64,000 nt of DNA. Source: Zopfochytrium polystomum. Lineage: Eukaryota; Chytridiomycota; Chytridiomycetes; Chytridiales; Chytridiaceae. This document shows, piece after piece, positions 54,355 to 62,281 of this stretch; position 1 is the stretch's first letter, and every line of letters begins with the position of its first letter. The translations under genes were made by a program, and so were the position numbers. The DNA lies in assembly GCA_025765615.1 (NCBI GenBank), contig JAIVFJ010000071.1, forward strand, positions 186,001 to 250,000. The letters are read 5' to 3'. Below the pieces are notes generated by a model. It made no database searches. It saw nothing but the letters and a program-made list of their open reading frames with translations, and was not told the origin of the DNA.

Positions 54355-55310
54355 ATGAGTACAAAATCGACTAGAACAATGACCCACAACGCTTGCGAGC
54401 AGAAGCCAGCCTCTGCGCAAAGATCAGCAAAATTCCTCTCCCTCTTCGCGGCCCTCCTGGCCGCTATCTGCCTCTCTTTCGTCGTTCAGGAGGTCCAGGC
54501 CTCACCCGACCCCCACCCGCACCCGCTCCCCGCCCCTCTCCCTGCCCCTCTTCCCGGCGACAATGTCTATCGCGCGCTAACAAGGGAGGACCGCCAGCAC
54601 CTCGACGCCGGAAGGGGCATCCCGGCGACGGACCCTCACGCGAGCATCACGCCGCAGCAGCACCAGGCCGGTGTGAAACCGAGCCAGTACATCTCCACAA
54701 CGCGGAACGAGAACAAGGTCCGCAATTCGTTCGACAGCGGCAACGGCATCGTCAAGATCAACTTGAACAAGGTTCCTGGCAACAAGGTGGACATGACAGA
54801 GCACTCCAAGGCGAACCCGGACAAGTTCAGCGAGTTCCAGCGGGCCATCATCAAGCGCGAGAAGGAGGTTCTGATTCAAGGCCACATTCCCGGCGACGCG
54901 TGCAAGCTGGTCAGGCGTGACGGGGTGAGTGCTTGTGTTCCGACCCCTCCGCTCCCTCCGAGCCTTCACATTCTCTCGCATTTGGTCCACGTTCTACCAC
55001 CTTTTGGCTTTGGTCACCATAGTAACACACTACCATCACCCGCTCTAATCCACAAAACTCTATTCTTTGGACCTCAAACATTCGGCAGACGACCCTCTAC
55101 CGCCGTGGCTGCAGTAAGGCGGTAAAGAGCAACAGTGCGTCCAAGACTCCAAGCACCAGCCCCAGAGCTGCCGATGCCAGGGGACGATCCGGAGCACCAA
55201 ACGCCAACAACGCAGCCCCCAAGCGTGCTGCTGCTTTAAAGCCTTCCGCTGCCCCGGCAAGGGTTTCGGGCGGCAAAAAGAAGTTCCGTGCGGTTGGACG
55301 GGCGGCCTGA
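54355..55310 (+). CDS. secreted ADP-ribosyltransferase-like protein, copy 1
   Basis: Exons 54355-54924 and 55089-55310 (phase 0), 263 aa. Residues 1-26 are polar, 27-46 form a hydrophobic signal or anchor (FLSLFAALLAAICLSFVV), then a Pro/His linker. The domain (about 70-195) has, in order, VYRALT (Arg73), QYISTTR (Ser-Thr-Thr 114-116), a GIVKINLNKV strand and KREKEVLIQGHIP with Glu-x-Glu at 169-171. This is the R-S-E order of the cholera-toxin/ARTC class of mono-ADP-ribosyltransferases; assignment is by motif only, activity is inference. Exon 2 adds LYRRGCSK and a basic Ala/Ser/Pro tail ending GGKKKFRAVGRAA. It is over 90% alike to copy 2 across the domain. Confidence 0.7.
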
Positions 55311-56336
55311 TCGAATTGCTGGAAGCTGGAAGACTCCATCCCATCTTCCTTAGTGAAGTTTTTGTTCAGCCCTTTTCTCCCTTTTCGCGCTCTCTAAGGT
55401 TTTTTGGTGTTTTCAGGATGCTCGCTTTTGGACGCCCGTGTGTGTGTGTGTGCAATGTGCGATGGCGATGATGGATCGTGCTTCATGGATTGGAGTCAGG
55501 GAAAAGTTTTTTGCGTTGTAAGCACTAAACAAAAGGATCCAAACATACTAAAATTGCTGGCGGGGTTGTGAAAGCAGTTGGAAGGGAACGTTTAGGATTT
55601 AGGAGAGACTCCAGGGCAACTGGAAGGCGACAGAGAACTGCAATGGTGCACTGCTTCCCAGCTGTCGGCGATGGCTTCAGCGCGAGTTGCGGGTTGAACA
55701 AGAGAACTTGATGAGCGGCAACGCACTGTCTTCACTGGAAAATGCCGCCGGTGTCTTCGTTGCCTTTTTTGGGTCCTCATCCGCCCAATCCCGGCTAAAG
55801 AACAATTTGCTGTAAGAGTCGGCAATCCCGAGCCCGTCGGGGTAAAATCAACGCTCAGCCGACATCACGAGTCGTCCAAGCGGCACAAGGGCTGAGACGA
55901 GAGACACGCAATGTGATTCTTCTGGTCCGCTTCGCCGTTGGCATTCGGAGGTCGGAAAGGCCATGCCCGTTGGGCTCAGCCCAACCTCCCAGATTTTTTG
56001 GCTCGAACTCCCAAACAGGCGCAGCCAAGAGGAAATTATTGTTGAAGGAATCGAAAAGAGAGCAGTGCAACGTCTATCGTTGTCCCCTCCTCACACACAC
56101 ACCCTCTCACTCACACACACACACACACACACACACACACACACTCTCTCTCTCTCTCTCTCTCTCTCTCTCTCTCTCTCTCTCTCTCTCTCTCTCTCTC
56201 TCTCTCTCTCTCTCTCTCTCTCTCTCTCTCCTCTCTCTCTCTCTCTCTCTCTCTAGCTCGCGCGCTCGCTCTCTTTCACTCTTTCTCTCTGTCTCAGCTT
56301 TACTCAGTTCAAATCACTGCAAAAAGAATACAATTC
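55311..56336. other. spacer between the tandem copies, with duplicated promoter
   Basis: Part (about 55960-56080) matches the region upstream of copy 1 (about 54055-54165), with shared CCCAGATTTTT and AGAGAGCAGTGC blocks. So the duplication included upstream sequence. A (CA)n-(CT)n tract follows. Confidence 0.6.
56111..56254 (+). repeat. (CA)n then (CT)n microsatellite
   Basis: CA 56111-56144, CT 56144-56254, 83 bp upstream of the copy 2 start, in the same position as the CT tract of copy 1. Confidence 0.95.
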
Positions 56337-60892: not shown

Positions 60893-61615
60893 ATGGCAAA
60901 GCAAGATATTTTTCTCCAAGACCTTGGCATTGAAGAAGTCAAAATAACGACCGCCATCAGGTGGCGTTTGATTCCAACAGAACGACCGAGGCGAAGGCAG
61001 TTTGGTGCACGAGCTTGCGATTGTTTCGCTGTCCCAGCCGTAAGCGAAGCAACCACTCATACTGTCAAGGATGTGGTTGTTTGCGCGGTTCTTGCCGTCG
61101 TGTTGATCGGCGCAGTTGCGGCCTTGCTCCTTTTTTGGGCTCCGCAGCTTCTCCGGCTCTTGAATTCGTTTACGCAGAGAGAGCGAGAGAGCGAGAGAGA
61201 GAGAGCCAGCGAGAGAGAGAGCCAACGAGAGAGAGAGCCAGCGAGGGAGAGAGACTGTGTGACCCATCCGCCGCGACCTCTGTGTGTCTGCAAGTGCAAC
61301 GCCCAAACCGTCCCCCCGCCAAACACATTCCTGCCAGCCTTTTCCACCGTCGCGGAAAGGTTTAGTAATTACTATCACCCTTCCCCTCGAGCTCCAACTC
61401 TTTGGCCGTGTTCACGAACATCGCTCTCTTTCCACGCGCTCAGCGAGTACGATGTCGCCTTCCGGCTCCTTGACAGCTCCGAAGCGAACCGTCATTTGCT
61501 TGCTGCTGTAACTTGGCTAGCTTCCTGCCTCTTATTTGCTTCTGGGGCGAACAGTTCGCCAGGTCCTTGCGCTGCCACTCCTCGCCCCTGTTCCACAAGC
61601 GGATACCGACCCTGA
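60893..61615 (+). CDS. possible membrane protein upstream of copy 3
   Basis: Frame from ATG 60893 has one clear membrane segment (VVVCAVLAVVLIGAVAALLL). It then passes through the GA microsatellite as Arg/Glu/Ser repeats and ends in the region where the signal peptide of copy 3 should lie. Only the first about 95 residues look protein-like. May be a real gene ending earlier by splicing, or chance. Confidence 0.25.
   Translation: MAKQDIFLQDLGIEEVKITTAIRWRLIPTERPRRRQFGARACDCFAVPAVSEATTHTVKDVVVCAVLAVVLIGAVAALLLFWAPQLLRLLNSFTQRERESERERASERESQREREPARERDCVTHPPRPLCVCKCNAQTVPPPNTFLPAFSTVAERFSNYYHPSPRAPTLWPCSRTSLSFHALSEYDVAFRLLDSSEANRHLLAAVTWLASCLLFASGANSSPGPCAATPRPCSTSGYRP
61175..61255 (+). repeat. 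imperfect (GA)n tract upstream of copy 3
   Basis: Purine on the plus strand, opposite in strand sense to the CT tracts upstream of copies 1 and 2. Confidence 0.85.
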
Positions 61616-62281
61616 GAAAAAAAAGGCAATTACGTGTACCGCTGCGTTGACACAGGAAGGCCGCAAATCGCTAGACGCCAGCAACGGCACCCCGTCGACG
61701 AGCGAGCGGGAGAATGCCAACGCAAACTTTCACTCCGAGCACCAGACCAACGTGAAACCGAGTCAGCACATTTCCACGTCGAGGGATGAGCAACGTTCGC
61801 GAGCAAACCCGGTATTTGGAAAGGTTCCCCAGAAACCCTCGAATCGATTTGGACAAGGTTCCCCAGAAACCCTTGGACATGGCAGAGCATGCAAAAGCGA
61901 GTTCCCAGAGTACCAGAGAAAGATTATCAACCGTGAGCAGGAGGTTTTGATCATAGATCACATTCCGCAAGAAGCCTGTACGCTCATCAGGCGAGACGGG
62001 GTAAGTACAATTTCTTTCTTAAACGCTTTGGACGCGCTTTGTTGCAACAAAAGTCGGATTTTAAACAGCATCATCGTCATCTCCAAACCTCTTTCCCCTT
62101 TCCTCCCACGGCCAACCTGACCAATCTTTATCGCCGTGAGTGCAGTCGACCAGAAACTCAAGGCTCCCGCCAATGCCGTTCCAGCTTTTTGTTTAAGCAC
62201 CAACGAATTTTCGCCTCATTCACCGCTGAGAGAGCGGTTTTGCCCGAGTTGTTTGAACCGTACACGCTCAAATCGTCCTGA
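61452..62281 (+). pseudogene. ADP-ribosyltransferase-like protein, copy 3, decayed
   Basis: The domain is recognisable: VYR at 61634-61642, then ALTQEGRKSLDA in the next frame after one extra T at 61643; QHISTSR (STS); REQEVLIIDHIPQEACTLIR with Glu-x-Glu intact. A 19-bp block (AAGGTTCCCCAGAAACCCT) is directly duplicated inside the domain and shifts the frame there and back. The donor (GTAAGT at 62001) is intact, but the acceptor matching copies 1 and 2 reads CTG instead of CAG before ACCAATCTTTATCGC (62120). The signal-peptide region is split between frames. The last exon lacks the basic tail and the KKKFR end. Probably a pseudogene, though the extra T alone could be a sequence error. Confidence 0.65.

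What the first reader, a model, noticed from the sequence alone, without database searches (positions are those of the whole stretch)
54355..62281. Tandem family of three secreted proteins with an R-S-E ADP-ribosyltransferase-like domain
All three copies keep, in the same order and spacing, YR (Arg), STT/STS and ExE (EKE, EKE, EQE) followed by HIP. A strand rich in Val/Ile lies between. This is the catalytic order of the cholera-toxin/ARTC class. Each also has a signal or anchor segment, a proline linker, and a second exon starting with LYRRxCS. A secreted ART family in a chytrid-like fungus, next to a mobile-element block, would be a candidate effector or inter-microbial weapon. I know of no described family with this layout. 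Catalysis is inferred from motifs only.
Basis: partly seen in the sequence, partly recalled or inferred. Interest (0 to 1): 0.9.

Follow-up and report, generated by a model that had tools for sequence, protein, structure and literature searches.

The report
Chytrid toxins from bacterial Rhs weapons
The chytrid fungus Zopfochytrium polystomum carries about 40 copies of a gene whose core matches a toxin domain that bacteria fire into rivals; the proteins are predicted to be secreted, likely modify target molecules with ADP-ribose, and carry a fungus-type pair of cysteines and a basic tail that would let the enzyme be cut loose from its carrier.

Summary
The R-S-E ADP-ribosyltransferase (ART) call holds for copies 1 and 2; copy 3 is a frame-broken remnant. 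The nearest solved relative is not cholera toxin but RhsF-CT of Chromobacterium violaceum (PDB 9ZDM; family profile E 6.7e-20), an antibacterial type VI toxin reported to ADP-ribosylate RNA (PMC13324451). The modelled domain (pLDDT 89) matches Rhs ART toxins, EcPltA, Scabin, ScARP and cholera A1. Forty genome copies span the domain (copy 3 counted) and form one branch among bacterial Rhs C-termini in a quick tree. Arg-Ser-Glu is kept in 32 of 40; seven lost the catalytic Glu, four of them the Arg too. All 40 have a Cys that 89 of 91 non-fungal relatives lack; a second-Cys module follows in 39. Paired arginines follow the first Cys in 35 of 40. A basic, acid-poor tail comes after, up to 890 residues in copy 2. 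I read this as a horizontally acquired Rhs toxin rebuilt for classical secretion, probably Kex2-nicked and disulfide-linked, like cholera A1/A2 in layout but independent of it. Activity, secretion, nicking and target are untested.

The parts
54355..54924 (+). Copy 1, exon 1: N-terminal hydrophobic segment, Pro-rich linker, ART domain, ACKLVRRDG; donor GACGGG|GTGAGT. The NCBI model of the near-identical gene starts at the equivalent of 54379
54565..54912 (+). Copy 1 ART domain; Arg 54571-54573, Ser 54694-54696, catalytic Glu 54865-54867, first Cys 54901-54903
   Evidence: C71:240565-240912 in the genome; codon places counted by hand from the translation
55089..55310 (+). Copy 1, exon 2: TTLYRRGC (second Cys 55110-55112, counted by hand) and a 65-residue basic tail (15 K+R, 1 D+E) holding GGKKKFR near its end
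   Evidence: exon join by analogy with NCBI model P0001
56337..56903 (+). Copy 2, exon 1: hydrophobic segment, Pro-rich linker, ART domain, ACTLIRRDG
56544..56891 (+). Copy 2 ART domain (90% identical to copy 1 over the aligned stretch)
   Evidence: C71:242544-242891
57035..59731 (+). Copy 2, exon 2: STLYRRAC, then an 890-residue Ala/Gly/Lys/Thr/Ser tail (130 K+R, 3 D+E), partly built of a 93-base tandem repeat, ending GGKKKFRSSQS
   Evidence: exon join by analogy with P0001
61644..61988 (+). Copy 3: decayed ART domain remnant; pieces lie in three frames
62123..62281 (+). Copy 3: remnant of exon 2 (NLYRREC) without a lysine-rich tail

Best explanation
Copies 1 and 2 belong to a chytrid gene family, 40 copies spanning the domain in this genome, whose core matches the toxin domain at the C-terminus of bacterial Rhs proteins and is predicted to take an ADP-ribosyltransferase fold; the family was likely gained from bacteria, and its products are predicted to be secreted, likely cut at paired arginines, and likely held by a disulfide to a basic tail. 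Mechanism proposed, with its status. (1) Shown: sequence relation to RhsF-CT and other Rhs C-termini; R-S-E retained in 32 of 40 copies; fungal copies on one branch of the tree; no Rhs YD-shell found in the genome. (2) Shown as sequence, function inferred: an N-terminal hydrophobic segment, giving entry to the secretory pathway; Cys-RRDG-L[YF]RR-Cys in most copies, giving a Kex2 nick with the halves kept together by a disulfide; a Lys/Ala/Gly/Ser tail poor in acidic residues, which would bind an anionic surface or nucleic acid and carry the enzyme to or into the target. (3) Inferred: in the reducing cytosol of a target microbe the disulfide opens, the ART half is freed and transfers ADP-ribose from NAD+, most likely to RNA as RhsF-CT does in vitro. 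The producer would be protected by keeping the protein in the secretory pathway, not by a bacterial-type immunity protein.
Against: No activity, expression or secretion data. The Tyr essential in RhsF-CT lines up with Phe in copies 1 and 2, and that column is variable and badly aligned in the family. Five of 40 copies (C10, C416, three on C45) have the second Cys without RR after the first; in the three on C45 an RR is readable but I placed it in the intron. The domain itself holds 32 [KR]R pairs in 4700 residues, among them KR just before the catalytic EKE of copies 1 and 2, which Kex2 might also cut if exposed. The C27 copies and C34:260790 have a further CxxC between hydrophobic segment and domain, so the two-Cys rule is not universal. 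NCBI's model P0006 of the C27:375533 gene joins another frame than LYRRAC. Seven of 40 lack the catalytic Glu. NAD hydrolysis is not excluded: the ART-fold Rhs toxin Tne5 is a glycohydrolase (PMC13285283, passages read). The tree is a quick one with 123 columns, 50 open forks and long branches. The search for the bacterial immunity protein was empty with two queries but had no positive control.
Confidence: 0.6

Rival explanations
1. A cholera/ARTC-type enzyme that ADP-ribosylates arginine in a target protein.
Against: The first Glu, which from recall marks arginine-specific enzymes, is Asn in 14 of 40 copies and Asp in RhsF-CT; the nearest sequence relative is reported to modify RNA.
Confidence: 0.15
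2. An NAD(P) glycohydrolase: ART fold, but water is the acceptor and the target dies of NAD loss.
For: Tne5, another ART-fold Rhs C-terminus, does this (PMC13285283, passages); the Tyr of the RhsF triad is not kept in the window copies.
Against: Arg, Ser and second Glu are kept in 32 of 40 fungal copies and in at least 89 of 91 non-fungal rows; the closest tested relative, RhsF-CT, is a transferase.
Confidence: 0.15
3. A domesticated secreted protein without toxic use, for example a wall or matrix protein in which the lysine-rich tail is the working part and the ART domain a scaffold.
For: Tails vary widely in length while the domain is constant; seven of 40 copies lost the catalytic Glu yet keep both Cys and the tail.
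Against: The catalytic triad is kept in 32 of 40 copies and dN/dS on the domain is below 1.
Confidence: 0.15

Closest known systems
RhsF-CT, Chromobacterium violaceum T6SS Rhs toxin (PDB 9ZDM, PMC13324451)
   Same: Same domain by sequence (E 9.1e-10 for exon 1 of one copy, 6.7e-20 for the profile); Arg, Ser and Glu align to R1403, S1445, E1497
   Different: There the domain is the tip of a large Rhs protein delivered by a type VI system and paired with immunity protein RhsFi; here it stands alone behind an N-terminal hydrophobic segment, with a C-terminal Cys-RR-Cys-basic tail; the RhsF Tyr is Phe in the window copies
Pfam DUF7587 (PF24494)
   Same: 20 of 23 domain rows match at E<=1, best 3.1e-8; 9 of 22 genome places are over the cut-off; many non-fungal relatives carry the label
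   Different: Copies 1 and 2 score 16.8 and 14.9 bits, under the 27-bit cut-off
Tox-ART-RSE of polymorphic toxins (Zhang et al. 2012, PMC3482391, passages read)
   Same: ART fold, R-S-E class, bacterial polymorphic-toxin origin, transfer into fungi reported
   Different: Reported motif is RxDxR, S, [DN]xN, E and the fungal hosts are ascomycetes and basidiomycetes; 'chytrid' does not occur in the 300,000 characters held
Cholera toxin A1/A2
   Different: No cholera chain among the PDB sequence hits at E<=10; no B subunit was looked for; the first Cys sits on a domain whose bacterial relatives nearly all lack it, so likeness of layout would be convergent
Yeast killer toxins K1, K2, K28
   Same: Secreted fungal toxins cut by Kex2 at dibasic sites (PMC13211469, passages read)
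   Different: The term adp-ribos does not occur in that paper; homology to them was not tested here

Membership tests
ADP-ribosyltransferase superfamily | ART fold | tested here: met
   Predicted model pLDDT 89.1; the top rows of Foldseek and VIA are ART toxins and enzymes, followed by the Tpt1/KptA RNA 2'-phosphotransferases. Predicted, not solved
ADP-ribosyltransferase superfamily | Arg - Ser(-Thr-Thr/Ser) - Glu in order | tested here: met
   Both window copies 1 and 2; 32 of 40 copies; 91/91 R, 89/91 S, 90/91 E in non-fungal rows
ADP-ribosyltransferase superfamily | NAD+ dependent transfer | not testable with these tools
   no assay
RhsF-CT-type toxin domain | significant sequence match to RhsF-CT over the whole domain | tested here: met
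RhsF-CT-type toxin domain | Tyr1456 of the essential R-Y-E triad | tested here: inconclusive
   Phe in copies 1 and 2; column poorly aligned
Rhs polymorphic toxin system | Rhs YD-shell in front of the toxin domain | tested here: not met
   Stand-alone secreted-type proteins; no YD-shell match in the genome (weak control: rang in 1 of 14 genomes, under the cut-off)
Rhs polymorphic toxin system | adjacent immunity gene | tested here: inconclusive
   A 102-103 aa gene follows the toxin in three bacterial loci; no match in this genome with two queries, no positive control
Pfam DUF7587 PF24494 | score over the curated cut-off | tested here: not met
   Copies 1 and 2: 16.8 and 14.9 bits against 27; copy 3: none; 9 of 22 places elsewhere in the genome pass. 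Homologous, but the window copies are not filed as members
A1/A2-type nicked disulfide-linked ART toxins | two Cys flanking a protease site C-terminal of the ART domain | tested here: met
   Cys1 40 of 40; second-Cys module 39 of 40, the other frame-broken; RR after Cys1 in 35 of 40
A1/A2-type nicked disulfide-linked ART toxins | actual nick and disulfide | not testable with these tools
   needs protein
A1/A2-type nicked disulfide-linked ART toxins | receptor-binding B subunit | not tested
   no search made

The most novel reading that the evidence does not exclude
A chytrid has turned an antibacterial, RNA-ADP-ribosylating Rhs warhead into a self-delivering two-chain toxin: the type VI injector and Rhs cage are replaced by a signal peptide, a Kex2-cut disulfide hinge and a polycationic carrier of up to 890 residues, amplified to some 40 copies, with catalytically dead paralogues (R to H, E to A) kept tail to tail with active-type copies as possible decoys or self-protection.
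Probability: 0.25. Interest if true: 0.85.

Novelty: new variant of a known kind. Interest (0 to 1): 0.66.

Why it matters
Bacterial polymorphic-toxin domains are known to reach fungi, but how a domain that depends on an injection machine could work without one is open. This family offers a readable answer: a Cys-RR-Cys hinge and basic tail, absent from nearly all non-fungal relatives examined, repeated across some 40 copies and varied in length. If right, it would be a eukaryotic toxin family that plausibly acts on RNA by ADP-ribosylation, would suggest a function for fungal DUF7587 proteins, and would show independent evolution of the cholera-type nicked, disulfide-linked layout. The pseudo-enzyme copies make self-protection directly testable.

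Tried and rejected
Cholera/ARTC membership was set aside for the nearer RhsF-CT relation. Chance motif order was rejected by the PDB match and the copy number. Assembly contamination was rejected: intron-bearing NCBI model, 22 contigs, a 283 kb contig with ordinary eukaryotic neighbours. A frozen pseudogene family was rejected by dN/dS below 1, except copy 3 and the partial places. A viral source: Foldseek against viral proteins gave no match at E<=0.001. A bacterial immunity homologue in the genome: nothing found, no positive control. Rhs shell remnants: nothing found. The immunity profile had no PDB match under E 0.18, so it did not find RhsFi either. NarE, Scabin-like and Ntox50 in Pfam were weak single or double matches only. 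Not in print, as far as searched: full-text searches for DUF7587 (0 papers), Zopfochytrium (7 in the listing, none opened), Rhs + ADP-ribosyltransferase + toxin domain + immunity (42 papers, 30 listed, three opened), fungi + horizontal gene transfer + polymorphic toxin + Rhs (15 listed, two opened), chytrid + ADP-ribosyltransferase + secreted (1 paper, listing only), fungal + ADP-ribosyltransferase toxin + effector + horizontal gene transfer (4 listed, one opened), Chytridiomycota + toxin + horizontally acquired + bacterial + secreted (2 papers, passages read in both). Modelling of the pseudo-enzyme clade was not done. The 40 copies may include haplotigs (37 distinct DNA sequences, 35 distinct proteins), so the number of true loci may be lower.
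Full report
The organism. The window is G000:C71:186001-250000 of an 80.16 Mb assembly in 761 contigs. Proteins 89 and 92% identical to copy 1 are recorded as hypothetical proteins of the chytrid Zopfochytrium polystomum; the contig lengths given for them, 73,882 and 431,738, equal those of C289 and C34 of this assembly.

What is in the window. Copy 1 has exon 1 at 54355-54924 and exon 2 at 55089-55310. Copy 2 has exon 1 at 56337-56903 and exon 2 at 57035-59731. 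The exon join follows the NCBI model P0001, which reads ...ACKLVRRDG-TTLYRRGCS.... Copy 3 (61644-61988 plus 62123-62281) is broken: its YR, its STS/EQE and its middle stretch lie in three frames, the 40 bases printed before NLYRREC hold no AG, and the rest is not basic. Copy 2's tail has 890 residues after the second Cys, with 130 Lys+Arg and 3 Asp+Glu. Secretion is judged from a hydrophobic N-terminal segment; no signal-peptide predictor was run.

How many and how conserved. The genome search found 47 matches at E<=1. HMM reading of the fetched loci gives 52 rows, 40 of which span the domain, on 22 contigs. One of the other 12 rows is the cut end of a copy already counted (C71:77868), and two pairs (C34:260790/261049, C254:80897/81015) are pieces of one gene each. 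The 40 include the one-frame reading of copy 3. Of the 40, 32 have R-S-E; three have R-A-A, two H-N-A, two H-S-A, and copy 3 has no Arg in that frame. The first Glu of ExE is E in 26 and N in 14. In 91 non-fungal rows R is 91, S 89, E 90 (30 of 162 rows that did not span the domain were dropped first; the 41 fungal rows of that call include seven NCBI records, most of them database copies of these loci). Pairwise dN/dS ran from 0.03 to 0.61 in 22 of 23 pairs, one being undefined.

Origin. Profile searches of 5.8 billion proteins returned 27 and 96 hits (339 and 7998 candidates scored): Zopfochytrium, named bacteria (Gilliamella, Flavobacterium, Tenacibaculum, Porphyromonas, Neisseria, Streptomyces and others, often as RHS-repeat proteins), unnamed records, and one dinoflagellate record (Symbiodinium rhsC3, P0104). 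Three bacterial loci read here show the domain at the very end of Rhs-type proteins, followed at once by a conserved 102-103 aa gene, the usual place of an immunity gene. In a quick tree of 122 rows the 35 fungal rows sit on one side of a branch with SH-aLRT 95; fork order is poorly resolved (123 columns, 50 of 119 inner branches open, long branches). No YD-shell was found in the fungal genome. The simplest reading is one gain of the toxin tip from bacteria followed by amplification.

The fungal addition. All 40 copies have Cys in the motif A-C-x-[LI], where 89 of 91 non-fungal rows have another residue or a gap. A second-Cys module follows in 39 of 40: L[YF]RR-x(0-9)-C in 34, CG[AP]TAST in two, PC[TK]V[FL]KP in three; in the other (C274:8180) it is frame-broken. 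In intron-bearing copies the second exon was found by motif, not by a splice predictor; NCBI's model P0006 of the C27:375533 gene joins another frame instead. In the 17 single-exon genes read from Met to stop (1 of 18 tried had no Met) these are the only Cys beyond residue 25; the C27 copies and C34:260790 have a further CxxC before the domain. RR follows Cys1 within 7 residues in 35 of 40, against 3 RR, and 32 [KR]R, in 4700 domain residues; in the three C45 copies an RR is readable but was placed in the intron. The 66 of 91 non-fungal rows that could be measured end a median 5 residues after the domain; four run on 20 or more. Where found, the tails of copies other than copy 3 are basic and acid-poor, and in P0001 the tail is predicted disordered (pLDDT under 60). 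The shortest tails, 10 and 15 residues (C27), rest on the motif reading; among single-exon genes the shortest is 38.

Reading. Cys - paired Arg - Cys after an ART domain is the layout of cholera toxin A1/A2, whose nicked chains stay joined by the Cys187-Cys199 disulfide until reduction frees the enzyme (PMC8741891, passage read). Kex2 cutting at dibasic sites matures several yeast killer toxins (PMC13211469, passages read). I therefore propose a secreted, Kex2-nicked, disulfide-linked ART with a basic carrier tail. Shown: the sequences. Inferred: secretion, nick, disulfide, delivery, enzymatic action, RNA as target. RhsP2, another RNA-directed ART toxin, binds RNA by a positively charged surface (PMC12340436, abstract and outline read), so the tail might instead help substrate binding.

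Against the reading. The RhsF Tyr is not kept; five copies lack the RR; KR pairs inside the domain could be cut as well; seven copies lack the Glu; Tne5 shows that an ART-fold Rhs toxin can be a glycohydrolase (PMC13285283, passages read). Nothing here shows expression.

Dead copies. Four H-type copies lie on C87 and C211 together with R-S-E copies. The pairs C87:137058(+)/138353(-) and C211:83289(+)/84593(-) are tail to tail, and H-type fragments lie beside R-S-E copies on C34, C510 and C211. C87 and C211 may be two versions of one region. A protective or decoy role is speculation.

Known and new. Transfer of at least 13 polymorphic-toxin domains to fungi, and an R-S-E ART in ascomycetes and basidiomycetes, are in print (PMC3482391, passages read); rhs genes reached gall midges (PMC8455502, passages read). 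In the main text of a survey of 44 early-diverging fungi the terms Rhs, ADP-ribos and Zopfochytrium do not occur (PMC11291939, term search). New here, as far as searched: this toxin type in a chytrid, its amplification, and the hinge-and-tail architecture.

Noticed in passing
57335-57624: 93-base tandem repeat inside the coding sequence of copy 2's basic tail (3.1 copies), a ready way for tail length to change
   Followed up: partly
54221-54284 and 56144-56295: CT dinucleotide arrays shortly upstream of copies 1 and 2
   Followed up: no
62872-63687 (-) and 25222-26160 (-): Ankyrin-repeat ORFs (Ank_4, E 1.8e-10 and 3e-5)
   Followed up: no
22214-23254 (+) and 26377-27669 (+): NIF-type phosphatase domain (E 2.7e-24) and WD40 beta-propeller matches: ordinary eukaryotic neighbours
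   Followed up: no
G000 C87 and C211 (L026, L028, L035, L041): Paralogues with YR changed to YH and EVL to AKL, each keeping both Cys and the basic tail, beside active-type copies
   Followed up: partly
L054 837-1145, L056 3327-3632, L057 3966-4271: Conserved 102-103 aa gene directly after the Rhs toxin tip in Azospirillum, Verrucomicrobiaceae and Rugamonas; probable immunity family, best PDB match E 0.18
   Followed up: partly
P0104: A Symbiodinium record called rhsC3 carries a distant relative of the domain; a second eukaryotic transfer or a contaminant
   Followed up: no
L016, L019, L020 (C27, C34:260790): Sub-clade with an extra CxxC between the hydrophobic segment and the ART domain
   Followed up: no
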